DNA of 64,000 nt from Gaeumannomyces sp. JS-464 (taxonomy: Eukaryota; Ascomycota; Sordariomycetes; Magnaporthales; Magnaporthaceae): contig NGZR01000007.1 in the NCBI GenBank assembly GCA_002197995.1, positions 2,128,399-2,192,398 of the forward strand. Reading direction: 5' to 3'. Positions 37,626 through 61,072 of the stretch are shown here, in pieces. The notes beneath the pieces were generated by a model that had not been told where the DNA came from, searched no databases, and saw nothing but the letters and a program-made list of their open reading frames with translations. How positions within the stretch are numbered: the first letter of the stretch is position 1; the number at the start of each line of letters is the position of its first letter. Made by a program: the position numbers and the translations under genes.

Positions 37626-39658
37626 ATGCGCACCGCGTTCGGACTCGCGGCGCTGTTCGCCTTCACCCTGTGACGGCGCAGTCTGCCTTCCCTGAGTACG
37701 ACAACAGGATCCCGGAGACCGAGAAGGTTGCTCTCGCTTCCGTTGTGGAAGATGATCCTGCCGACTTCATGTCGGTGATGAAGAAGGATGAGAGCCCGCT
37801 GTACCCTCTCATCTACAAAACACCTCTCCCGATTCCTCCCATCAAGCAGCCCCTGAAGTACGTTTCTGGATGCATGAGGCCCCCTTGACAGCGATGAGGC
37901 AGGTGCTAACCATGAGTGTGATCCACAGGAAGTTTACCAACCCTGTTAGCGGAGCGGAGATATGGTACTATGAGGTGGAGATCAAGCAGTTCCGCCAGCA
38001 GGTCTACCCCGACCTGAACGCGGCCACCTTCAATGGCTACGATGGCACGAGCCCGGGCCCGACCATCATGGTCCCTCGCGGCACCGAGTCCATCGTCCGC
38101 TTCATCAACGTCGCCAACACCCCAAGCTCTGTTCACCTGCACGGGTCCTACTCCCGCGCCCCCTGGGACGGCTGGGCCGAGGATATGACGCAGCCTGGCG
38201 AGTATAAGGACTACTACTACCCCAACCGCCAGTCGGCTCGGCTGCTGTGGTACCATGACCATGCCATGCACGTGGTGCGTAGCGCCCCACACTCGCACCT
38301 CACCCAGGTTCCGCATGTAAGAACCTTGACTGACCTCTCCCAACCTAGACGGCTGAGAACGCCTACACGGGCCTAGCTGGAGCGTACCTGATCACCGATG
38401 CCGGGGAGTCCTCCCTGAACCTGCCCTCCGGGTACGGCCAGTACGACATCCCGCTCATCTTGTCGTCCAAGCAGTACAACCGCGATGGCTCGCTCTTCTC
38501 CTCGGTCGGCGAGGACAAGAGTCTTTGGGGCGACGTGATACACGTCAATGGCCAGCCCTGGCCGTTCCTCAACGTCGAGCCCCGCAAGTACCGCTTCCGG
38601 TTCTTGAACTCGGCCATCTCGCGGTCCTTTGCCCTCTACTTCGCCACCGCCCTCAACATCAACGGCAAGTTGCCCTTCCAGGTCATCGCGTCTGACGGCG
38701 GCCTGCTGGAGAATCCTGTGCAGGTTTCGCACATGTACGTTGCCAATGCAGAGCGCTACGAGGTCGTCTTCGACTTTTCCCAGTTCGCCGGCCAGGCCAT
38801 CGACCTCCGCAACCTGCCCAAGGCCGGCGGCGTCGGTGTTGAGGACGACTATCAGGACACCGACAAGGTTATGCGCTTCGTCGTGTCCTCGGCCGTCTCT
38901 GCCCCCGACACCAGCAACGTCCCCGCCAAACTCCGCGACGTCCCCTTCCCCAGTGCCCCAACGGCAAGTCCATTGACCACCACTTCCGCTTCCACCGCAC
39001 CAACAGCGAGTGGCGCATCAACGGCATCGGTTTCGCCGATGTCCAAAACCGCGTCCTCGCCAACGTGCCCCGCGGTACTGTCGAGATCTGGGAGCTCGAG
39101 AACTCGTCCGGCGGCTGGTCGCACCCAATCCACATCCACCTGGTTGATTTTAAAGTTTTGGAGCGCAAGGGATCCGAGGGCACCCGCTCCGTCGAGCCGT
39201 ACGAGGCCGTCGGCCTCAAGGATGTCGTCTGGCTCGGCCGCCACGAGACGGTGCTCGTCGAGGCCCACTACGCCCCCTGGGATGGCGTTTACATGTTCCA
39301 TTGCCACAACCTAATCCACGAGGACCAGGACATGATGGCCGCTTTTAACGTGACGGCCCTGCCCAACTTCGGCTACAACGAGACCACGCACTTCATCGAC
39401 CCCATGGAGGGCCGCTGGAGGGCCAAGGCCTTCAGCCGCTCCGACCTCGGCTCGCGCACCGGGCCTTTCTCCGACGCCGAGATCGAGAAGAACGTCATGT
39501 TCCTGGCCGGCACTAATCCCTACAGCAAGGCCGAGGACATCACCAAGGCTCTGGACGAGTACTGGACTGCTAGGGGCGTCAAGGCCAAGCGCGTCGCTGT
39601 CCGTGACGCCGAAGAGGCGACTGGTGTCATCCCGAGGTACCGTCGCGGCCGCAACTAA
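37626..39658 (+). CDS. Bilirubin-oxidase-like multicopper oxidase
   Basis: Exons are 37626-37857, 37929-38274 and 38349-39658. All four copper-binding motifs are present: SSVHLHGSYSRAPWDGW (T2/T3), LLWYHDHAMHV (T3), HPIHIHLVDF (T1/T2/T3) and MFHCHNLIHEDQDMM (T1/T3 with axial Met). These ligands and the DMM ending fit the bilirubin oxidase branch of ascomycete oxidases, which couple substrate oxidation to reduction of O2 to water. The N-terminus MRTAFGLAALFAFTL is a signal peptide. Missing bases near 37672 (FTL then TAQSAFPEY) and near 38953 (PFP then CPNGKSIDHHF) break the frame. With both restored it totals 1890 bp (629 aa). Likely secreted; roles in phenolic or pigment oxidation are possible. 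Confidence 0.85.
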
Positions 39659-42931: not shown

Positions 42932-44791
42932 ATGAAGCCAGGCGATGATGAGCCTTCGGCTAAAGAGACTGGCAATCCCATCATGTCCAAAGCAACTCCT
43001 CTTGCCCCTGCGGCTTCTGGCGGCCGAGACCACGCCGATGTCCCCAGCACCAGGCGGTTCCTGAATCCGGACGACCCCATCTGCGTCTTGCTCGTCGGCC
43101 CATCGCAGAATGGGAAGACTACTCTGGTCAACCGCATCATCGACTTGGCAGCAAACAAGGTGGAGCGTGGACGAGAAGGCAACAAGATCGGGAAATGCAC
43201 CCAGGCCACGACCGAGTATGATCTGGAGGTGCCGACGTCCCAATACGTCCTGGTCGACAGAAAAACGGACCTGGAGGCCTCCGACGTCATCGCAGATGAG
43301 AAGACTCTCATTGAGAAATGGAGGAGGATGAAAACGGCGGACTTCAAGATCAAGCCACTCGATCCCGACGCACCCTACCTCAAGCTCCGCCTGTCGACAC
43401 TCCTGGCCTCGATGATAGCGAGGGCAAAGACTACGACAACATGGAGAGCGTTCTCAGCACCCTCAATCTCATGTCTCAGGCTGAGGAGCCCTGGAAGCGT
43501 AAGCTCAATGCCCTTGTGCTCGTCTACAACTCGAAGAACGCCTTTTCGACTTCTTTCCAAACTGCCGTCAAGAACTACCACCGGTGCATGCCCAACTTGT
43601 TCGGCGGCATGGCCTTCGTCAACACGCACTTCGACATCAACACCCTGCGCCAGGAGCGACACAAGCTGGTGCAGCTGAAGATTCTCGAGAAGCCAGGTGA
43701 AAGCGCGCGCCGTGCCATTGTGCGCAGCCGTGCCGATGCCTTTCGAAAGCTGGTGGGCCTGGGCCTGAACCCGACGTACTTTTATGTCGACAACCGTCCA
43801 CCCCGCGACAACCCCTGCTCGGAGCTCCTGTCTCGCAACACCATCGTCGACCTGATATCCTACCTGGCTGCCTCCAGATCCAGCCCGATGCCCATCAAAC
43901 AGATGCGCGTCTCCAAGAGCCCCGACATGCAGGCAGTCGACGCCAGGCTGCAGCGCTTCCTCGCGGCCGCCATCCGGCGCTGGTCCGGTGAGCTGGAGGC
44001 CGCGCGTGAGCGGGCATCCGAGGCCCAGCGCTTTCGCAGCGAGGTGTTGCAGTTCCGCAAGCATCTCGAGAACTTCATCGCGCGGTGTCGCGAGGACCTG
44101 GACCGCTGGGACAACGACACCCGCTTCGACCTGCGGTCCTACATGACAGACGACGATCCAAATATTGGCTTCTTGTTCTTCGGCGGAGCGATCCTGCGCA
44201 TGAAGGTCCAGAACTCCATGACGATCACCGAGCCGGAGTTCGCGGCGGACGAGTTCTGGGTTGACGCCGTGGATGGACAAACTGGGCGCTGGCTCGGGTA
44301 CGAGTGGAAGAAAGACCCGCGCACGTGGGTCGGCAATTACGAGGGGTACCCGGGCAAGGCTCCGAGGCTGCTGGCAAAGTCCTGGACGACCAACAGGATC
44401 AAACATAAGCAGGCCATTGCTGATATCAAGAAACAGATGCGGGAGCACGAGGCCTTCCTGGAGCAAAATGAGGCCAGCCATGTGGAACATACGCCGCACC
44501 CAGCAGACCGAGGCAGGCGACTCTACGACGCTTTCCACTCAGACAGAGGTGGACGAGAAGCTTAATGAGCTGGGCGGCTGGATCGAGACCGCTAAGCATC
44601 TGCAGGAGATACTGGCTCAGGAGAGCCCTCCGGTTGACACGGGCTTCAACGAGGCGGCCAGGAAGCGGTATCAGAAAACGCCCAGTCAGGTTGGCCTTGC
44701 AGATCTTTATGACTGCGTCGAGGCTTCCAATCTGAAGATTGATCTTCTAAAGCCATTGAGGTCGGTGTTTCTGGAGGAGAATGACATCTGA
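42932..44791 (+). CDS. AIG1/IMAP-like P-loop GTPase with coiled coil, copy 1
   Basis: The start MKPGDDEPSAKETG gives a low-complexity leader. The G1 loop GPSQNGKT is at residues 56-63, and G3 is in LVDTPGLDDSEGKDYDN. An AFVNTHFD segment stands where G4 is expected; IMAP/AIG1 proteins also use a non-canonical G4. A long charged helix follows (EAARERASEAQRFRSEV and beyond), then an aromatic spacer (SYMTDDDPNIGFLFFGG, EFAADEFWVDAVDG) and a second helical tail. One base is missing near 43388, just before the G3 motif, and a compensating +1 lies near 44500. The total is 619 aa. Family knowledge: IMAP-type GTPases oligomerise on membranes. First of three related genes here. Confidence 0.7.
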
Positions 44792-45358
44792 GACTTTGTG
44801 CTTCTGAGGAATTTGGTTCTGCTTGAGGGACTTCATGGACATGGCTCAATTCTCGATGGAGTGGCATTGTAACGGCAGACTTCAGACAGTCCGAGACGAC
44901 TTTTGTGCCAAGCAATCGTCTTTAATTCCTTGTACACCTAGCCTGATCTGTTGGTGATGGTATTTTTCTTACGGGGGAACTCCGAAGCGCATACATTCTC
45001 ACTGAGAATGATGGAATACGCTTCGCTGGAGGACGGTTAATGCACAGGGAAGGAATACGGGTAGCAGAGAGACTGAGTGACAAGAATAAATCCCGGAATT
45101 ATCACAAAGCAGCTAAGGAACGAACAAAAGACTGAGGAAGGTTCCCACAAACAAAGGCAGTTCATCCGTTTCCAAATGCGTGACAGGGTCCTACAGCGTA
45201 ACCCCCCCTTGGCCGGCGCCCCAGTAGCGACCACTTTCGTCCATCGGTTTTTCTTGGAAGCACCCTCTGGGTTCTCGGATGGTCGTGGGGGATCCCTTCA
45301 GGCTTCTTATTGCTCCCCTCGACGGTAGCTACTGCGATCACACCCCCGAGCATCGAGT
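44792..45358. other. Convergent intergenic gap between GTPase copies 1 and 2
   Basis: A small imperfect inverted repeat is seen around 44981-45025 (ACTCCGAAGCGCATACATTCTC against GAATACGCTTCGCTGGAG), perhaps terminator-like. No gene. Confidence 0.5.
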
Positions 45359-47043
45359 TCAGAAGTGCGTGGCGGCAAGCAGTAGCGCAGTCGCGGGATC
45401 GTACACGTTGACGAGCTCCACGACCTCATCCATGCCGACTTTGTCTGTGCCGGTATAGAGCTTTCGCAACTCAGGCCACAGGGTTACGTCCAGGGTCTTT
45501 TGCTCGAGGGTCTCCTTCACCCGCTCCACCTTCTCAAGCTCCGCTCCCAGCTTTTCCACCTCTCCGTCCAGCTCGACGCCGCCGCCGGCCTCGGACTTGA
45601 CAGTATTCACATAGCCTTCCAGGTCATAGGCCAGGTCTGCCTGTTTGTCTTGAAGCTCCTCGATCTTTCGCGAATGCATGATGCGGTTAGTCGAGTAGAA
45701 GGTCGCGGAGCCGGCCATGCTACTGAACAGCCCCGCCTTCAGCCTGGCGCTCCATCTCCTTGGGCCCCTCTCTTCGTCCACCCACTGAGATCCAGGCTCT
45801 GTCGACGTGACAATGTTGCAAATGTCACAGGGGGCTTGGAAGCCAGCTTGGCGCTTTTGGAGTTGAAGCCTGCCGCAGAGCAGCAGGTCTTGGATGATCG
45901 AATAGTCGTCCTGAACAGATTTGGTACCAAGCAGGATCTCGTGATCGTTGTCAATCTGGGCCAAGTTGGCTTTGCACTGGTCCAGCTTTCTGCGGGAGCG
46001 TGTCACCTCTCTCTTTGCGAGCTCGAGTTTCTGCTTGGACTTGGACGCGTCGGCCATCTTACGGTTCAGGGCCTCTCCCAGGCGGTCTTGGACGCGTCCC
46101 AGAGCCAAGACTGCCTTGCTATCGAGCAAATCCATGTTGGGCGCCTTGAAAAGCCTGACATTGGAAATGTCCAGCGGGCGCTGCTTGGAAAGCAGCTTCA
46201 GTAGTTGATAGCAGCTATTGAGAGACTGGACAACGGAAAATGGGCTGTAAGGGTCCGGCTCATTGTCCATGAAGAAGTGGGCGTTGCGGTTGTGTCCACC
46301 AGTCGCGGCCTCGAACCCCTTGCGACGGTCATCTGCGAGATCCAAACCCTCTGATATAGCTTCGGCGACTCCATCAGTTGTGAAGCGTGAGTGGACGACG
46401 ATCATGCCCTTGCAAAGCATGGGCATGCAGCGCTCGAGGTAGTCGTACCATGTCTTGAAGGCCCGGCCGAACGGCAGCTCCATTGATCGCACATAGATGA
46501 TGGCGTTGAGGTGCGGGAGCGTGGTGATGTTGCGGATGATGTCGGCCATGATGGCCACGTCGTTGCCGCCCGAGTCGTCGAGACCGGGCGTGTCGAAGAA
46601 TTCGAAGTGGAAAGTCTTGCCACCCTCGTCGGGCACGCTCTGAGCCTTGTTGGCATCCTCCCAACTGAGGCTGAGTAGCTCATCGTAATCAGAGCACCTC
46701 AAGGGCTCGCCTTCCGTGTCGACTAGGGAATAGCTGTGAAGACGCGTCGATACTGGATGGGATGCGACGGTCTTGGTGCAAGATTCGTTGCCTGTGGGGT
46801 TGTTAGCCAAGCCCAACCATTGTCAGTCGAAAATGAGCTTTGCGAAGTGGAAGGGTAGCTTTTACCATTCCCGATCAACACTTCCGGGATTTCGTTGCCG
46901 CTGTAAATGCCAAGCCGTTTGACCAGGGTGCTTTTGCCATTTGCGGTCTCTCCTAGAATGAGGACGTTGATGGGCTTGTCTGTGTGGGACGTCGAAGCAG
47001 GAGCTGCAGGGCCAGAGGCCTGGCTGCCGCGTTTGGTGACCAT
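45359..47043 (-). CDS. AIG1/IMAP-like P-loop GTPase with coiled coil, copy 2
   Basis: Exons are 47043-46866 and 46791-45359 (74 bp intron just after the G1 region). Intact, 536 aa. G1 is GETANGKS at residues 31-38 and G3 is FEFFDTPGLDDSGGND. GMIVVHSRFTTD occupies the G4 position. After the G domain come KMADASKSKQKLELAKREV and a following helix, a CDIC-containing spacer with a WVDEERGPRRW segment, then a second long heptad-rich helix (RKIEELQDKQADLAYDLEGY and VEKLGAELEKVERVKETLEQ). No signal peptide is present. The C-terminal YDPATALLLAATHF is hydrophobic but short. As the only unbroken member it is the best reference for the group. Transcribed opposite to copies 1 and 3. Confidence 0.75.
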
Positions 47044-47682
47044 TCCTGCGCGAGTGGTACGAAGAAAGGCGCGGGGATGCTAGAAATGGCTGAACGCTTG
47101 GTGCTTTGCTGCCTGGGCGTTTGGCGGCAAAGAAGAAAAAAGTGAGAACGTTCCAGGATGGCGAGCACCTGGAAGCGGGGAAACGATGGGCGAAGTAAAA
47201 GAGTGGAGGTCGTGGAAAAAAGCATGAATTAATAGGCGGAGAGTTGGGGACCAGCTGGCTCCTGCCACCGATGTGTTTCGCCGCCTTCCTCAGCCATTGG
47301 ATGCCAGAGAGCAAACGGCTGGCCAATAATTAACTGTCCTTGCAGCACATTCATGGGTCGGGCACCCAAACACGTGGTGGGCTTGGGCAAACTAACCCCT
47401 TTCCACTTGTTTCTAGCCTAAGAAAGATCCGCCTTATGCCCCGCAGCCACTGCAAGTTTGACGTGGCTTAGCCCCGTTTGTTTTACCAGTAGGAATTGGA
47501 AAAAGTCAAACATGATTCTTTTTTTTTTTCCCCATTGACCTTGAGCACCAGCATCCACAACTTTGCTGTTGCTTGCATTTTTGTTTATAACGACTATTTT
47601 CAGCAATCGTTGTTTAAGTTTTGCATTTGCTCTCCCACTCTATTCTCTGAAGCACATATCCTGGCTGGTTTGCCCCTTCGAC
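47044..47682. other. Divergent promoter between GTPase copies 2 and 3
   Basis: About 640 bp shared by two start codons pointing away from each other, so the two genes may be co-regulated. It contains a T10 tract near 47519 and no gene. Confidence 0.55.
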
Positions 47683-49628
47683 ATGTCCCACTTCCAAGAG
47701 GACAGTTGCTCGTGCGGCCAGGAGCCCGTCAACGTCCTCCTGCTAGGATGCACCCAGCAAGGAAAGTCATCCCTCATCAGGTCGTTATACGACTACGCGG
47801 GACGTGGCCAAGCCCGAGATGCGATCGAAATCGGAGCCTTTGGGAACTCGTCTGTCACGAAGGAGTGCTCCGTCTATCCGCTCACAGTCAAGCTCCGCGA
47901 CCATGCATTTAAAGATCAAGATGGCAAAACATTGTCCATCAACAGCCTTGCTGACGTTGAGGATGTGGAAGCCCTCATGGATGGTGGATATTACTCAGCT
48001 GGCAGCCAAGATGGCGAGGACGACGAGATAGAGCCGTCAGCCACCCACGACGTCAGCTACACCGGACAGCACATCCATCTCCGCATCATCGACACGCCGG
48101 GCCTAGACGATAGCGACAACGGCAAGGCGGCATGCGATGCCAGTGCCGGCCTGCGCATGGACGTCGAGGACGAGAAGCACAAAATGACCATCTTCAAAGC
48201 TGTTGTGGCCGAGGGCAAAATCAGCGCTGTGTGCATTGTGATCAGTACTGAGGGCAACCTGGGAGGGGCCCTTCCACGGATTCTGCGAGAGTACAAGACG
48301 CTGCTCAGCCACATGGGCTTGGGAGATAACCTTCACTTCCTGCATACCTACGTCGACGAGTTCGACATGTGGGATAAGATGGCCAGCCGCCCGCACGCCG
48401 TCAGCACGGCGCTCTGCGACTTTACTGCAACCCACCACTTTCTCAACAACATCCCCTGCAGTCCAGTCGGAGAATATCTGGCCCAGCGAGCCCTAGCTAG
48501 ACTTTTGCACTCAATAGCCCAAGACAACCTCCAGGCTGTCCAGCAATTTGGATACCCCAAGCCCTACGCGTTCGGGGAGATGGAGGAGCACATCCATGAC
48601 GCCTTGTGCATGGCTTGCAGAGTTGGGAGACGAAGATCAAAACCAACCAAAGTGAAATCGGCGAGCTCGAGATCCGGAAAGCCGGCCTGGAGGCCCGCTT
48701 CCACAAGCAGATGGAGATCTGGCGTAACCTCAACACCGAGTTCGAGGGCCTGGACACCTGCGAGGAAGTCGAGATCAAGCACTTCCGGGGCGACGCTCAC
48801 CCCCCATTCCCCTTCTTCCCCGCCAGGCTGGACGTCCATCTCAGCACCGACTACCCGATCCGCAACGTCAGGAGGGACACGCCAGGCCATGCTCACTGGG
48901 AGGGGCCACCGGACGAGCACTGGCGGGGGAACCACCACTTCCACCAGACCCTCGCCGCCAACGGCATCTTCAGCCACATCTGGACCACGGTCTGGCTACG
49001 GGTGGCGGAAGGAGGTCGAGGCCAGCCGCCTCTCGACGCTCCACGCCGAGCGGGACGAGGCCTGGCACGCGCATGCGCGCACCAAGGACGAGATCAACAA
49101 GACGAGCGAGGAGATCACGCAAAAGACGAGGGGAAAGGAGAACCTCGAGCGAGAGCGTGACGCCGCGGCGTCCAGGATCGCTGATCTCCGTCAGAACCTG
49201 ATCCCCTTGGACATTATTCAGACCAAGGGCCACTACCTTGCTAGTACAAGCCTGGTCAGCTACGCGTACGGAAGGGGAGTCACCCAGGACTTGCTCGAGC
49301 TGTCCCTACTGCCGGCACCCCTGAGCCGTCGGTGAAAAGCACTGCTCTGACGAACTACCGCGCAAAGATGGCCCAACTGGAGGAGGCCAGGGAGGAGTCC
49401 CAAGAGAAGCAGAAAGAGATTGCCGCATCACGGAAGGCCGCAGAGGCCATGGTCAACATTGTTCTGGGAAAGGACACGTGCAGGGCGGGCCTGTTTGCCG
49501 CCCTGACGATATCTATCACCAAGTTCGGCCACGAGAGCGAGGCTGTGTGGGAGCATGTCTTCAGTGAGTTGAAAGAATGCTACGTAAAGGACCCACAGAA
49601 CTGGGACAGACTACTAGAGCTTTTGTAA
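47683..49628 (+). CDS. AIG1/IMAP-like P-loop GTPase with coiled coil, copy 3
   Basis: The start MSHFQEDSCSCGQEPVNVLL is chosen because the P-loop follows at once, as in copy 2. G1 is GCTQQGKS at residues 22-29 and G3 is RIIDTPGLDDSDNGK. An acidic insert (DGEDDEIEPSATHD) sits before G3. HTYVDEFDMWDKM lies at the G4 position. Then come helices (IKTNQSEIGELEIRKAGLEA), a His/Trp-rich spacer (HWEGPPDEHWRGNHHFHQ), and two more coiled-coil stretches ending NYRAKMAQLEEAREESQEKQ. The frame is broken near 48620 (-1), 49005 (+1 or -2) and 49312 (-1); corrected length 648 aa. The three copies share the order G domain, coil, spacer, coil, but little sequence identity outside G1/G3. Confidence 0.7.
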
Positions 49629-51270: not shown

Positions 51271-53033
51271 CTACTTGTCGGACGCGCCAGGCCCCGGCTC
51301 TGCCCCATCCTCTGTGTGCCATACCCCGCCGTTCTCGCTGCTTGAGCCGCACTTGACTGCCTCTGGGCGAGTCTCCTCGTCCAAATTTACAAGCGGCTCG
51401 CCATTCTTGCCATAGCGCCGCGGCTCAACCTCGGCCTGGCACACGACGTCAAACACCCCCCTGACGCCCTTCACCTTGTGGAAGATCGAGTCCATCTCCT
51501 CGAGCGACCGGTACGCAGTCTCGGGAAGAAGAAGTACACGCAGGGGACCATGAAGGCGTTTATGACGGCGAATATGATGTAGGTCTGGTATCCTATCGTG
51601 TTGAACGAGACGGGGGTGATCATCACAACCTGGTGATCTCTGTCAGCGGATGCCGCTGGATGGGCTTGGGTATGGAGACGTCGTCAGGGGAGATCGGGCG
51701 GGTGCTTACCAAAAAGTTGAAGATCCAGTTGGCAGAGGTCGACAGTGCATTGGCCGGCGCCCTGATCCGAAGCGGCACGATCTCGGCCGGATACAGCCAA
51801 GTCATTCCCAACCAACCAACGGCAAAGAAGGTATTGAACACAAACAAGAAGACGATCCCCGTGATCTGGTAAGGGAGCTCGTTCTTCGACCCAACGCCAG
51901 CCAAGACCGCCATCGTTGCCGCTTGTCCACGGCACCAAACAGCATGAGTTTCCGACGGCCGACCCGCTCCACGAGGAAGACGGCAGGCCAGGACGCAAGG
52001 AAGTACTCGGTCCCGTTCAGGGCGGCCAGTAGACGGGACATAAAGTCCGACATGCCGAGACGCGAGTAAATGACGGCGGCGTAGTACGTGATGAGGTTGA
52101 TGCCGAGATCTGCTGGAACATCTGGTTGACATACGCCAGCAACGTACGGTGGAGATGGCGGTTCTTGTCCGTCGTGAACAGGTCCGCAAAACTCCCCTTG
52201 AACATCTCCTCCACCGTCTCCTTAAAATCCAGTACTCCCCTGGACGTAGTCGTGATCGACGGGCAGGTCCGCAACAGCCGCTATCACCTCTCGCGCGTCG
52301 TCGTGGCGGCCCTTGAGGATCAGCCAGCACGGCGACTCGGGGAGGTTCCACAAAAGGCCAGGATGAAAGGCAAAAACGACCTGGAACGCAAGTGGAAAAG
52401 CGCCACGCCACCGATGTCGGGAAGAAGGAGAAGCCCAGGTCAACCCAGTACGAGACCATGACGCCCGCACGTGATGAGCGCGCCCTCAACCATGACCAGC
52501 TTGCCCCGCTTGTGGGCGCTGCACGTCTCGGACTGCCAGGTCGGCACCGTCGACGTGTTGGCGCCGTTTCCGAGCCCCGTAATAATGCGCCCGATAACGA
52601 AGTGGTCCAGCTGGAAGGCGGTCGCCTGCAGCACCGCGCCGACCACCAAACGGCGGTGCCAAGCGCGATCATGCGCTTGCGGCCCAGCGGGTTGCTGATC
52701 CAAATGGCGGTAATGGCTCCGAGGAAGCAGCCAAGGTTGTACGACGCTATGGCGATTCCCTGGTTGGTTGCCCGCCGCGACGACTCCGTCGGGGCAAGCC
52801 CGTCCTCCTCAGGGTTGATGGAAGGGAACTGCCTCAGGAAAACGGACAGGGTAAGGATACCGCCCATCACGCCCTGGTCTGGAGTCATGGGGACAAATTA
52901 GAGAGACAGTTAGCCAATGTTTAAAGGGCAGATGGCGTTACTTACCATATCCAAAAAGCAGGAAATCGCAGCCGGCAATGGTGCTGATGGCCCAGTTGAG
53001 GCTTTCGCCTCGCAGACCGAAATATTTCCCCAT
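51271..53033 (-). CDS. MFS sugar transporter, many frame breaks
   Basis: The start MGKYFGLRGESLNWAISTIA leads into TM1, interrupted by an intron at about 52943-52880, then DQGVMGGILTLSVFLRQFPS. Sugar-porter signatures follow: NPLGRKRMIALG, the long GRIITGLGNGANTSTVPTWQ block after TM3-4, NLPESPCWLILKGR at the central loop, FLVERVGRRKLMLFG, and GMTWLYPAEIVPLRIRAPAN near TM10. A second intron lies at about 51700-51630. The tail (YRSLEEMDSIFHKVKG) is cytosolic. These mark the hexose/disaccharide:H+ symporter family of the plasma membrane. At least five frame changes occur along the gene, more than in its neighbours, so exact exons are uncertain and true decay is possible here. Substrate unknown. 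Confidence 0.65.
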
Positions 53034-53846
53034 TGTTGCTGAGGGTGTTTCCGATGCAGAAGGATGTTAAGAGGCAGGACGGAGGGATATCACACCGCGG
53101 AGGGCGTAGAAAGGAGAGGTACAAAATGGACAGCGGTTGATGATCTCACCACCTACGCCACTGGAACCACCCATGCCGTTTGCGATCTCCATGGGGAAGG
53201 ATCAGGTATTTAAACCCACGACGACAGAAAAAGGTCGACATTTCGAGCTGATCGCTTGGTCAGATTCCAAACAATTCAATCCCGGGCCGACGGCACAGCT
53301 TCTCCCCACCGTACCACCTCCTCCAAGCCTCGGCGATGCGCCCCTGATGGTGCGTTGGTTTGGGGCCTGTGGGGGGCGCCGACGCACTGTTGATCCCCGC
53401 TGACGTCAACCCCCGCCAGGCGGAGCTGGGCGCCCCCCGGCAATCAAATGGCTTCCACCTAACTGCCGCTCACGGCCCGGAGAACTTGGATCTGCCCGCA
53501 GTTCCCGAGTCAGGGCCTCCCGTCGTGCCGCCTTGATTGACCAACCCCGATCGGAACCACCTTGGATCTTTTGGCGTTGATGTGGGTGCGCACGCCGGGA
53601 GTGTGGCTTGTTCAAACCGCAGCGTCTCCGCCTCGCACTGCATCGTTGTCACGTAGGCTGCCTAGCAGTACTTCATCGGTGCCCGAATGTCCTCCGCTCG
53701 CGTCTTTTTACCCGCCAGTGGGCACCGGCTCGTTCATAACTACCCAAGGAGGGCATCAAGAGAGGGAACTCGGGATCTGGTTTTAAAAGCTGTTTTTGTT
53801 TCGCATTGGGATTTATCAAGTTATACAACCGTGAGGAGCCAAACAA
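53034..53846. other. Intergenic, holds one copy of a dispersed repeat
   Basis: Promoter of the transporter, then the 160 bp repeat at 53281-53440, then the 3' flank of the sedolisin gene. No gene supported. Confidence 0.6.
53281..53440 (+). repeat. Dispersed 160-bp repeat, copy A
   Basis: Aligns over its full length with 58208-58364 in the same orientation at roughly 80% identity, with shared blocks CGGGCCGACGGC, GGGCGCCGACGC and CGTCAACCCCCGCC. GC-rich, no coding. Confidence 0.75.
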
Positions 53847-55748
53847 TTAACCAAGCGCCTCGGTGAACCTCGCAAAGTCCAGCGTCCCCATCCCCGTCGC
53901 CGGGTCCCACCCTCCAGCGCGGTCCATCCGAACTCGGTGTGCTCCCGCGAGCTGCAGCTCCCGCTCGTGCCTTGCGTAACGTCGTTAAAGGCACCCTTCA
54001 GCCGCTCCGAGTAGAGCAGCGGGTTGAGGAACCCCAGCGGCGGCTTGCCCGCCCTCATGCGCTTGTCGTTGGCCAGCGCCACCATGGCCGCCACGACGGG
54101 CGTGCTGGCGCTGGTGCCCTTCTGCGTCCACTCTCTGCCCACCGGCGGCGGCTTCTGCATGAGGAAGCGCGACCCGACTGCCGACACGTCCGGGTACGCC
54201 CTGCCGCCGGGCGCGTACCAGCCGGCGTGCGACCCGTTGATGCGGCCGAGGTAGCCGGCCACGGCGGCGTCCTGCCAGGCCGGCCGCGCAAAGTACTCGC
54301 TGAACCCGCCCGAGCTGAACCAGGCCGGCTCGGTGGGGAGGTAGGCGCCCGTGGCGCCCACGGCGGTGACGTAGGGGCAGCCAACGGGGAAGGTGGGGAT
54401 GAACTTGCGGCGGCCGCTGCCGTCGTTGGCCAGGCACTCGCCCGACTGGACGCCCGCGGCGCCGCCGTCGCCCGTGGCCACCAGCACCGAGGCGCCGCGC
54501 GCCGCGACCTGGGCGAACAGGTCGCACACGCGGCGCTACGCCTCGGGGATGTCCTGCTCGTCGTCCGTGTACGAGACGGAGATGACGTGCGGCACCGTCG
54601 GGCGCGCCAGCAGGTATGTCAGCAGGTCGGCCCAAGGCTCCTGCGCGCTCTTCGAGTCCGGCACCATGGTGCGGTTTGGCCCGCTCTGGTCCGGCCCCCG
54701 CCCTGCCGTCGAGAGGAAGGTGACGTTCATGGGCTGGACGAACGGCATGCTGTACTGCACGTCCAGCTGTGCCTCGACACCGGGGCCATTGGGGCGGGTA
54801 GGGGTGCCGTTGATGCGCTCCATGGTGAAGTTGTACACGGGGCTGAAGTCGGTCTCGTTCCGTCTGGGGCTGTAGTCGGCCAGGAAGGTGGTGAGGAAGT
54901 CCTGGTTGGGGTATTCCTCCAGGAAGCCGGCGATGCCAAACTCGATTGGTGACTGGTGGTCGGGGACTTGGTAATTGATGTTGTAGAGGTCGACGAGGCA
55001 GGCTGGGGTGATATAAGCATTACAGCTTTGAGGGACTGTAACGGTAAGAATCAGCTCAATGGCCTCGGAGTTGATAGCCACATCCAGCAGCGCAACAAAA
55101 CTTCACCGAGATAAACTCACATGTAACCTGTCGCTTTCGCAAATCTGCCGACTCGACCTGGACAGCCTGGGGCTTCCTGGGGCTGCTCAGGAACTGGGTG
55201 ACAGGGTACACGAAATCCACCACGTCCGCAAGGGCCCGCGGTAGGCTGTACTCGTCGGCCCGCACCGCCTGCCTGCCGCTCTCTTTGTCCTTGTAAGTGG
55301 ACAGCTTGCAGCCGAGCAGGCGGTTTGCTGCGGCGGCCGTGGTGTCAAAGCGGACCCTCGCATCCGTAGCGTCGTACCTGGAACCCACGATGCCGGCCTC
55401 ATCAAGCCACGCCGAGACGGCCGCGACAGCCTCGGCGCCCGGGTCGCTGAAGGCGGCAACCTGGTCCCGCGACAGGTGCATGCCGTAGTCGGCGTGCGCG
55501 GGGTCGCTGATTGCGTCGAGGCGTGCTCGTAGGCCTTCCATGCCCGGCTGTCTCAGCGCGACGGAGAGGTGGACCCGGGCGGAGTCGGGCGCCGGCGCGA
55601 CGTACTGCCATCTAGCCAGCGCGGCCGCATTTGCCCTTTCGTGGACGACGAGGTCGGGCTGCTGCTGATGGGCGGCAGGGAGGATGGCAGCCGCTGCGGC
55701 TCCGAGGAGGAGACCGCCGAGCCCGGCTGTGGTGGAAAGGAGCCTCAT
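53847..55748 (-). CDS. Secreted sedolisin (S53), tripeptidyl-peptidase type
   Basis: Exons are 55748-55121 and 55035-53847. The signal peptide MRLLSTTAGLGGLLLGAAAA is followed by a pro-kumamolisin activation domain (about residues 35-200, with SDPAHADYGMHLSRDQVAAF) and cleavage near DLRKRQ. In the catalytic domain VEAQLDVQYS holds the catalytic Glu and Asp, ATGDGGAAG the oxyanion-hole Asp, and KGTSASTPVVAAM the Ser nucleophile. Acid-active sedolisins release tripeptides from proteins outside the cell. Two lesions are present: an in-frame TAG at 54536-54538 (IPEA-stop-RRVCDLF, where Tyr or Tyr-Ala is expected), and a missing base near 53910 just before WDPATGMGTLDFARF. Corrected length is 605 codons plus stop. 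Divergent from the aspartic protease gene. Confidence 0.8.
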
Positions 55749-56556
55749 CTTGATGACAGCCAAAGAGGAACAGGCTCCCTTTGTCGCGGTGGTCTCGCTG
55801 GTTCGACGCCTTGACGAGTCCGACAGTGCCTTGACAGCAGCTCGGATTTGGCGGCAATGGCGGGCTGTCGATCCCCTTTTGAGAGCCGAAGCTGCCCAGA
55901 GGGAAATTATGTCTTCCTGCGCGCGCGAAAGACGGCAGCCCATCATCCCCATACCGCCCCCGTCAGATATCCATCAAATTCTTTGCTTGCATGTCGTCAA
56001 CACCGTATCCGGGACATCCTCGTGTTGCCCCTGACCATAGTGGGCCGGGAATTCCTTTCTAGGCCGGGCCCGACGATCTTCTCGTGTTTCCACCGGGGCA
56101 GGAGGGAAATATGGGGAGATTCAATGCTTTGGAGATGCCTGTAAATCGATCGCAGGACGCCAGACACCCCTGACTCGATCCCCACCCCCGCCCTGTTAAG
56201 CCTTTCCAAGCACTCGCCACTGGTCTTGTCCCGTAGTTTGGGGGTCGCCGGCACCGACACGAGATTCTCGGCCCACAGTGACCCATCCGTTTGCTCGCTT
56301 GGTGTCCCCAGACGAGCGTGAAATTGCATTTCAGGCGGGAAAATGAGGTTGCGCCAACCACACGGGGTTGACATCAATGTAGACGAGGCACCTCGTTCCA
56401 ACAGGCGCCGGGGCACACGATGGCACAGCCGAATTTTGGTAGGGAGGCGTTTGTTATAAGACAAAAGGAGTCCGGCTGAGCGGTTATGGAGGAGGACAGG
56501 CGCTCTTCTCCTACCCCTGACTGTCCTGCTTTTGTCCAGTCGCCAAACAGCCCAAA
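55749..56556. other. Shared promoter of two secreted protease genes
   Basis: 808 bp between the start codons of the sedolisin (minus) and the aspartic protease (plus). This suggests joint control, for example by pH or nitrogen; PacC-type GCCAAG/CTTGGC sites would be the thing to count here. No gene supported. Confidence 0.55.
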
Positions 56557-57870
56557 ATGTCTGCCAGGTCATTTTTCCTCGCCTCGGCTGCGTCCCTCAT
56601 TGCCGCCACGGCAGCCCACCCCGCGCACGCCGCCGTGGCAGCCGTCTCGGCCCGTCAGGAGACCGGCGTGTCCATCCCGACGGTCCACATACCGCTAGGG
56701 CTAAACCTCAAGGTCACCGCCACCCTGAGCCTGCCGTGGGACAACCGTTCGATCGAGCTGGTGTTTGACAGCGGCTCTGAGAACTTCTGGGTCTTCGGCC
56801 CGGGCTCAACCTCCAACTGGGGCTGCACCGGCCTGCTCTGTCCGGGGCCCTGCAACGCATCTGTCACCAGCTTTTACGACTGGCCAAAGAGCCCCACAGC
56901 CTCGAAGCCGCCGCAAAAGTTCAACTCCTTTTACGCCTATGGCGCCTACACAAAGTACGTGACGGGCAACATCGCCGTCAACGACACATTCACCTTCACG
57001 TCGGCGGACGGCCACACCAGCAGCAGCACGGTTAAGAACGTCCGCGTCGCCGTCGAGAATTACATGTCGCAGCGGCTGGGGGTGGCGCAAGGGGGCTGCG
57101 CCGCGGGCGCCGGGTCCTACGACCTCGGCATCCTGGGCGTCTCGCCCTTTTACCGCAAGTCGGACTGGAACACGACGGGCCCGCACGTGAGGCAAGAGCT
57201 GCTGGAGCGGGGCGCCATCAAGGCGCCCGTGCAGAGCATCTGGTTCGACGAGCCGCCCGCGCAGTGGAACGGCTCCTTCACGGGCTCCGCCGTCTTCGGC
57301 GGGATCGACAGGTCCAAGTTCTCGGGCCCGCTAGTCAAGGTGCCGGTGCTGCAGAACGACGGGCTGGGCGCCAGCGTCGGCTACTTCGTCGCGCAGCCCA
57401 ACGTCAGCGTCGGCGGCGCCACGCTGCCGCGCGGCAAGCTCATCACGGGCGTGTGCCACCTCGACACGGGCACGACCAGCGACGACCTGCCGGTGCAGAC
57501 CGACGCCTTCGTCAGGGCCATGAACCTGACGCGCGACCCGTTTGGCGGCCTGGCCTGGCCGGGCGCCTGCGACACCATCCCGCTCGACAAGACCTTCGAG
57601 CTCACGTTCCCGGCGGCCCCGGGCCAGGCGCAGGACAGCGTCACCGTCAAGGTGCCGCTGCGCCATTACGCCCGCCCGGGCGCGGACCGGAACCCGGGCC
57701 TGTGCTCGCTGCGCATCGACACGGGCGGCTGCATGCTGTCGGCGCCTTTCGCGGCCGCGGCCTACTTTGCGGCCGACGACGCCGCCAACGAGATCGCCCT
57801 GGCGCAGGGCGGCGTGTCCAAGAGGGGGAGCGGGCCGGACGCTTCGGCCATGTCGTTGACCATCACTTAG
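56557..57870 (+). CDS. Secreted pepsin-like aspartic protease (A1), 437 aa
   Basis: A single intact exon. A signal peptide (MSARSFFLASAASLIAATAA) is followed by a short pro-region. The two catalytic motifs are LVFDSGSENFWVFG and CHLDTGTTSDDLP; both keep the Asp of D(S/T)G, the first as DSGS. The first lobe has an unusual Cys pair (GCTGLLCPGPCN) right after the catalytic motif, and another pair near the end (CSLRIDTGGCML) where pepsins usually have a disulfide. The flap Tyr is not in the usual YG context, although SFYAYGAYTKYVTG lies in the right place. N-glycosylation sequons occur (NAS, NDT, NGS, NVS, NLT). Functions in extracellular protein digestion; substrate preference cannot be told. 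No GPI-type tail. Confidence 0.85.
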   Translation: MSARSFFLASAASLIAATAAHPAHAAVAAVSARQETGVSIPTVHIPLGLNLKVTATLSLPWDNRSIELVFDSGSENFWVFGPGSTSNWGCTGLLCPGPCNASVTSFYDWPKSPTASKPPQKFNSFYAYGAYTKYVTGNIAVNDTFTFTSADGHTSSSTVKNVRVAVENYMSQRLGVAQGGCAAGAGSYDLGILGVSPFYRKSDWNTTGPHVRQELLERGAIKAPVQSIWFDEPPAQWNGSFTGSAVFGGIDRSKFSGPLVKVPVLQNDGLGASVGYFVAQPNVSVGGATLPRGKLITGVCHLDTGTTSDDLPVQTDAFVRAMNLTRDPFGGLAWPGACDTIPLDKTFELTFPAAPGQAQDSVTVKVPLRHYARPGADRNPGLCSLRIDTGGCMLSAPFAAAAYFAADDAANEIALAQGGVSKRGSGPDASAMSLTIT

Positions 57871-58504: not shown

Positions 58505-61072
58505 TCACCGCGACCCCTCGCTGTCGCTTCCGTATCTCCCATCCATCGAACCCCAATCGCTTGACCACTCGGTAGCGGCATCATCAACATCGTCGTCCCC
58601 CGGGTCGTTGTCGTGGGCCGTCTGGTAAGCCACTATCAGCCGCTCGAACGCCTCCCTCTCATCGGGCGACGTCATTAACCCCCTGCCTAATAACCATCGC
58701 ATACTCTTGATGTCGGAGTCCTTGTCCTTGATATAAAAGGCGGAGAGGTTTATCGAAGCGATGTGATCGAGAGCCTTTGTGGTCCCAAAAGAGGTGACCT
58801 CATCAAGAATGGTCCACTTGCCCTTACCAACCCTTAAAATGGGGTCGGCTCCCATCCGTATGGGGTATCGCTGAAGATCAAGGCAATTATTCCTGACGGC
58901 CACAGTGAGAGGTGTACTATAGTCGTCGTTTGCCAGAGCATCAATCGCCACGCCCTGCTTGAGTAGCACCCGAGCGGCGACCATGTTGTTAGCACGGGCT
59001 GCCCAGTGCAGCGGAGTCCAACCCTCACTGTCCTTGGCGCGAACATCCGCCCCAGCCTCCAGCAGGGCCATAGTGCAGGGTGTGCTATTGGCATAGATCG
59101 CCCACATTAGCGGGGTCTGGCCTCCGCTGTCGGGCTTCTCGATGTCAAACCCCTCCACTTCCAGAAGCGCCCGGAGGCACTCATGGGACTCAAGCGACGC
59201 TGCAGCGTGCATTGACAGCCCTTGATGGACGGGGTTTCGTGTCTTGCGCCAGCCCGCAATAGGGACCTCACGGCCGCCGCATTGCCGAGCCTGGCGGCGA
59301 GCTCTAAAGGCGGGCAGTCGAGGTCCGCGGGCGAATTTATCTGTGCGAGAACCTCTTTTCCCCCGTGGGATAAGACACTCTCAAGGTCGACAGGGCAGAT
59401 GCCGAGGAGGATCTTCTGTAGGTAGCTAAGCTCGAGGTCCATGTGCAGCGCAGTCTCGACAAAGGACGGGAGCAACCGCCTACTCTCATCAAGTCCGTAT
59501 ACCGGCGCTTGGAGGACACATATGGCGAACAGCTTCTTCGCCGAGCTCCCGTGGTCACCCTCATAGTCCGGGTCTGCACCTGCTTGAATCAACATATCAA
59601 TCTGCTCCGTCCGTTCGTCATAATTGAACACAATCGAAGGACTCGTAACGATCATGTGGAGCGCTGACTGGCCGATTTTCCTATGGACGTCGAGGATCCT
59701 TCCAGGATCCAGCCTCAAGATCCTCGTGAGCCTCTCGACTTGGAACCTGGCCGCCGCGTCAAGGAAGTCCCCGGTCCACATAGGGACTCTCCTACGGGCG
59801 GCAAGCCCCAGCATGAACCGGCGAGACGTCGACGCCTCGAGGGAGTAGGCTGACCTTGTGGCTCGCGAACCACGCCGGGAAACTGTAGGAAAGCCGCAGG
59901 CGAGCATATTTTCCCCGGCGGCACGTGCCTTGGTCGCAGCTGGAGCGACCATTCAAAGAGCCGGCGTAACCCAGAAGCAGTTGGCCGAACAGAGAGCCGA
60001 GGGGCAGGGAGTCTCAGGGAGGCGTCGTCCTTTGCCCGTGGCGTGTGGCGGCGGCAGCCACAGCCTTGGCCGCAGCGAGAGCTGGCCGGCACCACCGCAA
60101 TTTGGATGAGTGGCTCCACAGGAACGGTGCTGCCACAGCTCGGTAGTCCATGTTCTCGAGTGGCGAAGGAATGGCGCACCGCGCGTGAAGGGTGCGGCTG
60201 TTGGTCCGCCAGTGGAGGCATCGCGGGCTCTTGTGCGGAGCCGTCCAGTGGTTGTGGCGCTTTCTGCTCTGCCGCGATCGCTCGGTGGGCTAGTAGAACG
60301 TCGCGGCTTTCCTGGGTTGCCGAATGGATGGTCTCGAGGACAGCCATGATGTTCCGAAGCCCCGCTGCCTGACTGTTAGCAGCGGCCGTGTTTGCCGCTA
60401 TGCTTTCCTTGATGAAGCTAACGTCTCTCGCGATGGGCAGGCTGAGTTCGTGATTAGCGGCCAGGGCCTCTTGGGTTTGCTGATGATTGTTTGCGACAGA
60501 ACTCTCGAGGCAGTCGAAGGCCTGTTTGGTGTCAGTCGCCAAGGTGTCGAGCGTTTGGAGCGTCGGCCGTGGCTTTGTGGAATAAGCACATTGATATGGT
60601 GAAGCTCCAGCTCTATGCGGGCCGAGGACGCAAGGTTTGACGAGACCAGAATATGCATGAGGCCTGCGCTGGTGCTTCGAAGGCGATCTTTGAGGTCTTT
60701 TGCTTTCGTCTTGGGAACCGCAATTTGATCCTCTGGGCGGCTGTGTCAAGACCAGCCAAATGCCGTGATAAAATGTCGAGCTCGACCAACAAGCCTTTGG
60801 CCCTCGCCAACATGTCTCGTAGGCGCGCCTCCGGGGTAGCAAGGCTACTGCTTGAGGGGCCTGGCACGGGCATGGAGGGTGCAGCCAGGCTTGAGGTCGC
60901 TGAGGATACCTTGTCCAGGACAAGTTTGAGGTCTGTGACCTCGTTGGAAAGGGCCACTATCAGGGCGGGCGTGTTCTTAACTTCGCTGCAGAAGTTTGAC
61001 AGGACTCTGGGCTATGGGCAGCAATGGCGGCGAGACTTATGGCGAGGCCGCAATCGAGAAGGGGTCAGCCAT
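58505..61072 (-). CDS. Fungal_N-type N-terminal domain plus ankyrin repeats
   Basis: The start MADPFSIAAS at 61072 is the standard opening of fungal STAND-associated N-terminal domains. It is followed by ISLAAIAA, NFCSEVKNTPALIVALSNEV and TDLKLVLDKVSSATSS, then RAKGLLVELDILSRHLAGLD. Next come helical stretches (QAFDCLESSVANNHQQTQEA, DVSFIKESIAANTAAANSQA) and a Ser/Pro-rich linker. The ankyrin part includes LHMIVTSPSIVFNYD, PPLELAARLGNAAAVRSLLR, QTPLMWAIYANSTPCTMALL, GWTPLHWAARANNMVAARVL and STPLTVAVRNNCLD. An acidic tail (NDPGDDDVDDAATEWSSDWG) ends it. There is no NACHT or NB-ARC between the two halves. Several frame changes occur (near 61040, 60650, 60560, 59900, 59215), partly perhaps introns, so exons are not fixed. 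Likely cytosolic signalling adaptor. Confidence 0.65.

What the first reader, a model, noticed from the sequence alone, without database searches (positions are those of the whole stretch)
42932..49628. Cluster of three divergent AIG1/IMAP-like GTPases with coiled coils
Three genes within 6.7 kb each encode a P-loop (GPSQNGKT, GETANGKS, GCTQQGKS), an identical G3 core DTPGLDD, a non-NKxD G4 position, then coil, aromatic/His spacer and second coil. Outside G1/G3 they have diverged strongly, and copies 2 and 3 share a divergent promoter. Animal and plant IMAP/AIG1 GTPases act in immunity and oligomerise on membranes. A fast-diverging fungal array could be a self/non-self or stress-membrane system. 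The immune role is inference only.
Basis: partly seen in the sequence, partly recalled or inferred. Interest (0 to 1): 0.78.

Follow-up and report, generated by a model that had tools for sequence, protein, structure and literature searches.

The report
Three-gene fungal GTPase module
A fungal chromosome carries three very different but related GTP-binding proteins side by side; the same three recur as neighbours in distant fungi, so they look like parts of one unstudied machine, and their function is unknown.

Summary
The window is from an unnamed fungus whose three genes are closest to Gaeumannomyces/Magnaporthiopsis. Gene 2 is intact (one intron). Genes 1 and 3 are full-length homologues whose frames break two and three times. 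Comparable breaks occur in this genome's chaperonin and HSP70 genes, so assembly errors are likelier than pseudogenes.

The three are not a recent, fast-diverging array. No further copy was found in the genome; they fall in three old families (three clean clades), and recur as neighbours in other fungi, including Fusarium sp. NRRL 66182 and Apodospora peruviana. In all three trees those two group together, against taxonomy, as if the trio moved or was kept as one unit.

The predicted G domains (genes 2 and 3) fold most like Toc34; GIMAP ties with EF-Tu. None scored passes the Pfam AIG1 or septin cut-off; Dynamin_N is borderline. Each head carries a ~60-residue helix, a beta domain, a return helix and C-terminal helices.

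Best explanation: three subunits of one nucleotide-gated GTPase machine, heads pairing across their nucleotide faces. Linkage and paralogy are shown, architecture predicted; pairing, membrane action and any immune role are inference. My searches found no name or study of the family.

The parts
42932..44791 (+). Gene 1 (family g1), full-length homologue of a 611-aa Gaeumannomyces avenae protein, in three frame pieces: about 42935-43393, 43393-44475, 44477-44788
   Evidence: tblastn of P0020/P0021 on the window; whole-genome search found the same three pieces; homologues
43097..43120 (+). Gene 1 P-loop (G1) GPSQNGKT
   Evidence: sequence and translation
43396..43416 (+). Gene 1 G3 motif DTPGLDD, directly after the first frame break
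   Evidence: sequence and translation
45359..47043 (-). Gene 2 (family g2), intact, 536 aa; exon 1 46866-47043, exon 2 45359-46791
   Evidence: splice model; 80% identity to Magnaporthiopsis poae MAPG_09843 (P0001)
46792..46865 (-). Gene 2 intron, 74 bases, GT...AG, between G1 and G2
   Evidence: the tblastn match to P0001 breaks at this point, after residue 60
46930..46953 (-). Gene 2 P-loop GETANGKS
46574..46594 (-). Gene 2 G3 motif DTPGLDD
47044..47682 (.). Shared 639-base intergenic stretch between the start codons of genes 2 (leftward) and 3 (rightward); no promoter element tested that applies to fungi
   Evidence: bacterial-type scan uninformative
47683..49628 (+). Gene 3 (family g3), full-length homologue of a 654-aa G. 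avenae protein; frame breaks near 48607, 49000 and 49320
   Evidence: tblastn, whole-genome search, homologues
47746..47769 (+). Gene 3 P-loop GCTQQGKS
48091..48111 (+). Gene 3 G3 motif DTPGLDD

Best explanation
The three genes encode three distinct subunits of one GTPase machine that is inherited as a block. Each subunit has a TRAFAC-type GTPase head, nearest by predicted fold to Toc34 of the AIG1/Toc ('paraseptin') class, then a ~60-residue helix, a beta-rich domain, a return helix that would make an antiparallel hairpin with the first, and short C-terminal helices. Proposed mechanism: heads of different subunits pair across their nucleotide faces, as Toc34/Toc159 do and as is proposed for GIMAPs; pairing and hydrolysis switch a hetero-oligomer that carries beta-tipped stalks and engages a membrane or another target. 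Shown: three paralogous families, no further copies found, recurrent adjacency, shared anti-taxonomic history. Predicted (genes 2 and 3): fold and stalk architecture. Inferred: the same architecture for gene 1, hetero-pairing, division of labour (gene-2 kin lack the G4 Asp in 14 of 14 and carry an Arg after strand 4 in 18 of 18; g1 and g3 kin keep the Asp in part and lack the Arg), membrane action and biological role.
Against: No complex was predicted or observed. EF-Tu follows Toc34 by only 2.0 (g2) and 1.2 (g3) Z units, and in the joint profile search against PDB sequences Der/EngA GTPases come before Toc34 (E 1e-6 to 1e-5, P-loop and G3 only), so the class assignment is not secure. Linkage is not universal: M. 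poae g1 lies on another contig, Xylaria hypoxylon g1 and g3 are on contigs of different length, and several taxa gave only one family (search depth limited, so absence is not shown). Genes 1 and 3 of the window have broken frames, so they could be dying here. G4 is degenerate, so GTP specificity and even hydrolysis are unproven. A crude hydropathy scan of the 45 homologues and the window's gene 2 flagged only three stretches just over 1.6 (at most 1.75), two inside the G domain and one at its start, so membrane contact is speculation.
Confidence: 0.45

Rival explanations
1. A self/non-self (allorecognition) or anti-invader system: the three GTPases sense and act on foreign hyphae or parasites. 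(Not exclusive of the best explanation, which leaves the role open.)
For: Scattered hits, clustering and a history that conflicts with taxonomy are what conflict genes often show (general knowledge). [quoted passage not shown] AIG-subfamily GTPases are described as implicated in immunity-related processes in eukaryotes (PMC7159879, passage).
Against: No death, HET, NACHT or repeat domain over a cut-off was listed for the three proteins (part B lists were capped at 25 families); no further copies found; orthologues in close relatives; no sign of divergent alleles across species (g2 grouping of the window with Gaeumannomyces not rejected, p 0.19, so the three genes do not conflict within the family).
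Confidence: 0.2
2. Independent GTPases that merely stay neighbours by ancestry; adjacency has no functional meaning.
For: M. poae g1 and the Xylaria genes are separated; gene-2 kin were found without detected partners in Aspergillus wentii and two Arthrobotrys.
Against: The three stay together across Magnaporthales, Sordariales and one Fusarium, and share the same anti-taxonomic branch in all three trees.
Confidence: 0.2
3. Genes 1 and 3 are pseudogenes in this species and the locus is decaying.
For: Five frame breaks in two of three genes, about 5 in 5.4 kb of coding sequence.
Against: The pieces cover the orthologues almost from end to end at 54-77% identity. Breaks without room for an intron also occur in this genome's TCP1 (8 in 13,446 matched bases, by my rule) and HSP70 genes (2 in 12,051). 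The trio's rate is somewhat higher than either control, so decay is not excluded.
Confidence: 0.12
4. Dynamin-like membrane remodellers: stalk with an inserted beta domain in the place of a PH domain. (Overlaps the best explanation in outline.)
For: Order head, helix, beta domain, helix, C-terminal helices recalls dynamin (from general knowledge); Foldseek's first hits are bacterial dynamin-like proteins (2j68 E 5.0e-6; 5oxf_C E 5.8e-6); Pfam Dynamin_N 26.5 bits in P0020 against a cut-off of 27 and a better E-value in some g1 kin (best 1.6e-7); a precomputed PF00350 label on 9 of 15 g1 homologues.
Against: TM-scores of 0.18-0.25 and rmsd above 24 A in those hits (2j68 and 5owv_C for g2, 5oxf_C and 2j68 for g3); VIA ranks Toc34 first; the hairpin is predicted from two helices, not a four-helix stalk.
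Confidence: 0.2

Closest known systems
Toc34/Toc33 (chloroplast import receptor GTPases, AIG1/Toc class)
   Different: No long hairpin with beta domain is matched; 12-17% identity in the Toc rows; the Toc34 arginine finger was not located in these proteins.
GIMAP/IMAP (AIG1, PF04548)
   Different: Below the Pfam cut-off in every protein whose score was shown; beta domain inside the coil; three old families instead of a recent array; GIMAP scores no better than EF-Tu.
Septins
   Same: Several orthologue groups in opisthokonts whose subunits assemble together (PMC11238149, abstract start); septin E-values around 0.0005 in the joint profile (short stretches); TOC and AIG1/GIMAP are there called paraseptin GTPases (PMC11238149, passages).
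   Different: PF00735 at most 17.8 bits in the window ORFs against 26.2; beta domain inside the coil.
Bacterial dynamin-like proteins (BDLP 2j68; pair 5owv/5oxf)
   Same: Foldseek's top hits; the 5owv/5oxf title names an oligomerised bacterial dynamin pair for sensing and tethering membranes.
   Different: TM-scores 0.18-0.25; the head begins near the N-terminus here (first strand at residue 25 of P0001, 16 of P0035), leaving no room for a long N-terminal helical part.
Sordariales orthogroup OG0000027 (PMC12258605)
   Same: Similar set of overlapping domain hits (passages); same class of fungi.
   Different: Identity with g1-g3 is my inference; the sequences were not compared.

Membership tests
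AIG1/GIMAP (PF04548) | Profile score at or above the curated cut-off of 27 bits | tested here: not met
   Gene-3 ORF 12.6 bits, not listed for the gene-1 and gene-2 ORFs; orthologues P0020 14.0, P0035 14.6, not listed for P0001; own genome 0 matches at E 0.001. Weak matches (E up to 1): 10 of 15 g1, 4 of 18 g2, 9 of 11 g3 proteins, best E 2.6e-5; bits were not shown for those, about 24 by scaling.
AIG1/GIMAP (PF04548) | G-domain fold of the AIG1/Toc class | tested here: inconclusive
   Toc34 first in both models, but GIMAP7/GIMAP2 are close to EF-Tu in Z.
AIG1/GIMAP (PF04548) | Trans-acting arginine at the G interface (R-fingers in TOC and AIG1/GIMAP: PMC11238149; Toc34 R133: PMC12973003) | tested here: inconclusive
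   g2 kin carry an invariant Arg right after strand 4 (R161 of P0001, 18 of 18); g1 and g3 kin do not. Its position was not superposed on R133.
Septin (PF00735) | Profile score at or above 26.2 bits | tested here: not met
   Gene-3 ORF 17.8 bits, no septin listed for gene-1 or gene-2 ORFs; P0020 11.9 bits. Weak matches in 12 of 15 g1 (best E 0.00074), 4 of 18 g2 (0.00089), 4 of 11 g3 (0.039); bits not shown for those.
Dynamin superfamily (PF00350 Dynamin_N) | Profile score at or above 27 bits | tested here: inconclusive
   Gene-3 ORF 13.3, P0001 12.6, P0020 26.5, P0035 16.3; but a better E-value in some g1 kin (best 1.6e-7) and a precomputed PF00350 label on 9 of 15 g1 and 2 of 19 g2 homologues.
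Dynamin superfamily (PF00350 Dynamin_N) | Stalk bundle with self-assembly on membranes | not testable with these tools
   Only single-chain models; two-helix hairpin predicted.
MMR_HSR1 (PF01926, broad GTPase domain) | Profile score at or above 21.9 bits | tested here: inconclusive
   P0020 22.0 (just over), P0001 21.2, P0035 18.0, window ORFs of genes 1 and 3 20.0 and 17.7. It marks a P-loop GTPase, not a function.
Fungal allorecognition (het/NLR-type) genes | Divergent alleles within a species and an incompatibility phenotype | not testable with these tools
   No population data were examined; no HET, NACHT or repeat domain over a cut-off was listed.
   Taxonomic groupings rejected by AU tests (groups chosen after a first tree). 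Only 19, 15 and 12 protein clusters found, but those searches were capped, so distribution alone proves little.

The most novel reading that the evidence does not exclude
A previously unnamed three-subunit GTPase machine of filamentous fungi, built of AIG1/Toc-like heads on beta-tipped stalks, that spreads between fungal lineages as a complete gene block and acts as a non-self or anti-invader device, a fungal counterpart of the animal and plant AIG1/GIMAP immune GTPases.
Probability: 0.17. Interest if true: 0.82.

Novelty: new variant of a known kind. Interest (0 to 1): 0.55.

Why it matters
If the three proteins work together, this is a heteromeric GTPase machine in filamentous fungi that none of the profile libraries searched here (Pfam, NCBIfam, PADLOC) names, with an unusual head-stalk-beta-tip design. 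Its kept linkage and shared odd history across orders make one question directly testable: do three paralogous GTPase heads form an obligate hetero-assembly, and what does it do? It also shows that a cluster of diverged paralogues with one shared motif need not be a young array: here each copy belongs to an old family of its own.

Tried and rejected
Fast-diverging array: rejected, because the divergence between copies predates the species compared. Divergent alleles shared across species (suspected because g2 seemed to put the window with M. poae, support 91/88, while g1 and g3 put it with Gaeumannomyces): dropped, since g2 does not reject the Gaeumannomyces grouping (p 0.19), while g1 and g3 reject M. 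poae (p 8.5e-6 and 0.0049). Transport by a Starship element: no support; the 21 DUF3435 matches listed lie on other contigs than the window's C32 (best candidates only), and cargo in other species was not tested. Bacterial or viral homologues: none confirmed (genome contigs 591 pattern hits, 0 confirmed; viral contigs 17 pattern hits, 0 confirmed; one and two patterns were used and confirmation was against one sequence, so weak evidence). Defence profiles (PADLOC, three orthologues): LeoA/LeoBC hits at the P-loop region, weak PtuA and AriA hits, and one LmuB hit over most of P0020 (E 2.1e-5), read as coil plus P-loop similarity. NCBIfam (three orthologues): small_GTP below cut-off; a weak coil hit of P0001 to a binary-toxin subunit model (17.1 bits, cut-off 125) is read as coil similarity. 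Bacterial promoter scan of the intergenic stretch: not informative for a fungus. A third Foldseek job and the 'viral' structure library were not used. AU groupings were chosen from taxonomy, but after the first tree had been seen. No paper was found for six locus tags (0 papers) or for 'AIG1 domain' with 'fungal genomes' and GTPase (0 papers); other searches, of which I saw listings and the passages named in the report.
Full report
WHAT IS THERE. The window lies at C32:2128399-2192398 of a 53.0-Mb, 34-contig genome without a name. The best-matching named relatives of the three genes are Magnaporthiopsis poae, Gaeumannomyces tritici, G. avenae and G. hyphopodioides; Magnaporthiopsis is Magnaporthaceae, and so, from general knowledge, is Gaeumannomyces. 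Gene 1 (+, 42932-44791), gene 2 (-, 45359-47043) and gene 3 (+, 47683-49628) each carry a P-loop, a switch-I threonine and DTPGLDD. Gene 2 is intact with one 74-base intron and 536 residues. Genes 2 and 3 are head to head, 639 bases apart.

BROKEN FRAMES. tblastn of intact orthologues shows gene 1 complete but in three frame pieces and gene 3 complete with breaks near 48607, 49000 and 49320 (seen again in the whole-genome searches). At the first break of gene 1 the aligned residues run straight on, so no intron fits. As a control I looked for the same pattern, neighbouring matches of one profile in different frames with no room for an intron, in conserved genes of this genome. By my rule there were 8 in 13,446 matched bases of TCP1-family genes and 2 in 12,051 of HSP70 genes (from; one of the 8 is a long overlap of two matches rather than a clean switch). 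Genes 1 and 3 carry five; gene 2 none; together five in about 5.4 kb. The breaks are therefore probably assembly errors; the trio's rate is somewhat above both controls and decay is not excluded. Intact copies exist in relatives, including G. avenae and G. hyphopodioides, species for which HiFi assemblies are published (PMC11905480, abstract and passages).

THREE OLD FAMILIES. Each gene was searched once. Gene 2: 19 proteins among 7,997 scored candidates. Gene 1: 15 among 7,997. Gene 3: 12 among 2,855, one of them (P0012, E 3.2e-6) shared with gene 2. The tree of 46 rows (43 of the 45 proteins found, two fragments dropped, plus three window rows) gives three clades, each supported at 100 and needing one change. 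Orthologues across genera are closer than copies within the genome: gene 2 is 80% identical to its M. poae orthologue but 28% to gene 1. No further member was found in the own genome; beyond the trio there were two chance-level hits (E 0.87 and 0.90; none). The shared DTPGLDD is a family trait (35 of 38), not a trace of recent duplication.

KEPT TOGETHER. From locus tags and contig lengths: Fusarium sp. NRRL 66182 has g1, g2, g3 as F66182_6167, 6168, 6169; Apodospora peruviana has all three on a 9.30-Mb contig; G. avenae and G. hyphopodioides have g1 and g3 with one tag number between; M. poae has g2 and g3 with successive tags and g1 on another contig, as two gene models; Echria macrotheca and one JGI source have g1 and g3 on contigs of equal length, which I take to be the same contig. 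Against this, Xylaria hypoxylon g1 and g3 are on contigs of different length, and Coniochaeta, Bombardia, Lophiotrema, Thelonectria (g1), G. tritici, F. pseudocircinatum, A. wentii and two Arthrobotrys (g2) gave one family each. The searches depend on shared words, cluster at 90% identity and are capped, so absence is not shown.

AN UNTAXONOMIC HISTORY. Apodospora, Echria and Bombardia are Sordariales; Fusarium is Hypocreales (general knowledge). In g1 and g3, however, Apodospora groups with Fusarium 66182 (in g3 also with the unnamed P0041) and next to Magnaporthaceae. Holding the Sordariales together is rejected (g1 p 1.2e-35, and with Coniochaeta p 4.5e-10; g3 p 7.1e-6). In g2, holding the two Fusarium proteins together is rejected (p 2.6e-9). 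The groups were chosen after the first tree. Support for the Apodospora-Fusarium pair is 80/79 or 96/95 in g1 and 99/97 in g2. Transfer of the whole block, or an old duplicated block with losses, would both explain it; I cannot choose between them. Within Magnaporthaceae the three genes are compatible with the window's species being nearest Gaeumannomyces. No listed Starship captain match lies on contig C32.

DIVERGED G MOTIFS. In the joint alignment (38 of 45 proteins) the G4 Asp position is D in 7 of 13 g1, 0 of 14 g2 and 5 of 11 g3 proteins; the three families share similar H-F-x-x-[DN]-[NS]-x-P motifs at the G5 position. Gene-2 kin carry an invariant Arg just after strand 4 (18 of 18) that g1 and g3 kin lack. 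One reading is that subunits divide the labour of binding and activating, as in paired GTPases; this is inference, as the Arg was not superposed on the Toc34 finger.

MECHANISM. Committed view: three subunits, heads pairing across nucleotide faces, nucleotide state switching a stalked hetero-oligomer with beta tips as the contact part. Shown: paralogy, no further copies found, recurrent linkage, common history. Predicted: fold and stalk (genes 2 and 3). Inferred: pairing, membrane or target contact, role. An immune or allorecognition role fits the scattered, possibly mobile pattern, but nothing tested speaks for it directly.

WHAT IS KNOWN. TOC34/TOC159 and AIG1/GIMAP are called paraseptin GTPases, and their R-fingers are noted, in PMC11238149 (passages). 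AIG-subfamily GTPases occur as effector domains in bacterial conflict systems (PMC7159879, passages). [quoted passage not shown] g1 gives hits, mostly weak, to the same five models, so these families may be what was set aside. That link is my inference. I found no paper that names or studies the trio (search listings).

VERDICT. Real, partly as described, and better than described in one respect: it is a conserved three-family module, not a young array. Novelty: new variant of a known kind. Interest 0.55.

Noticed in passing
G000, TCP1 and HSP70 genes on C1, C12, C23 and C32: Conserved chaperonin and HSP70 genes show frame switches with no room for an intron: the assembly seems to carry many small indel errors, so frame-based pseudogene calls in it are unsafe.
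   Followed up: partly
window 38349-39658 (+) and 51623-52897 (-): The neighbouring multicopper oxidase matches its Pfam families in two overlapping ORFs of different frames, and the sugar-transporter ORF matches in two separate stretches, as expected from indel errors; introns were not excluded.
   Followed up: no
window 53816-55973 (-), 56521-57870 (+), 58505-59952 (-): Downstream neighbours: a sedolisin-type protease (Pro-kumamolisin and S8 matches), an aspartyl protease and an ankyrin-repeat protein; none looks like a partner of the trio.
   Followed up: no
window 47683-47720 and gene-3 homologues: A C-x-C-G motif sits just before the P-loop in 10 of 11 gene-3 homologues and in the window's gene 3, a candidate for lipid attachment or metal binding.
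   Followed up: no
G000, 21 DUF3435 (Starship captain type) matches: 20 of 21 captain-type matches (some are pieces of one gene) contain in-frame stops, mostly TAA or TAG, which would fit repeat-induced point mutation of old elements.
   Followed up: no
Magnaporthiopsis poae MAPG_01873/MAPG_01874 (P0034, P0029): The M. poae g1 homologue is away from its g2-g3 pair, split into two gene models, and about as distant from Gaeumannomyces (56%) as from Apodospora (59%) over the P0029 part: an ectopic paralogue or a fast-changing copy.
   Followed up: partly
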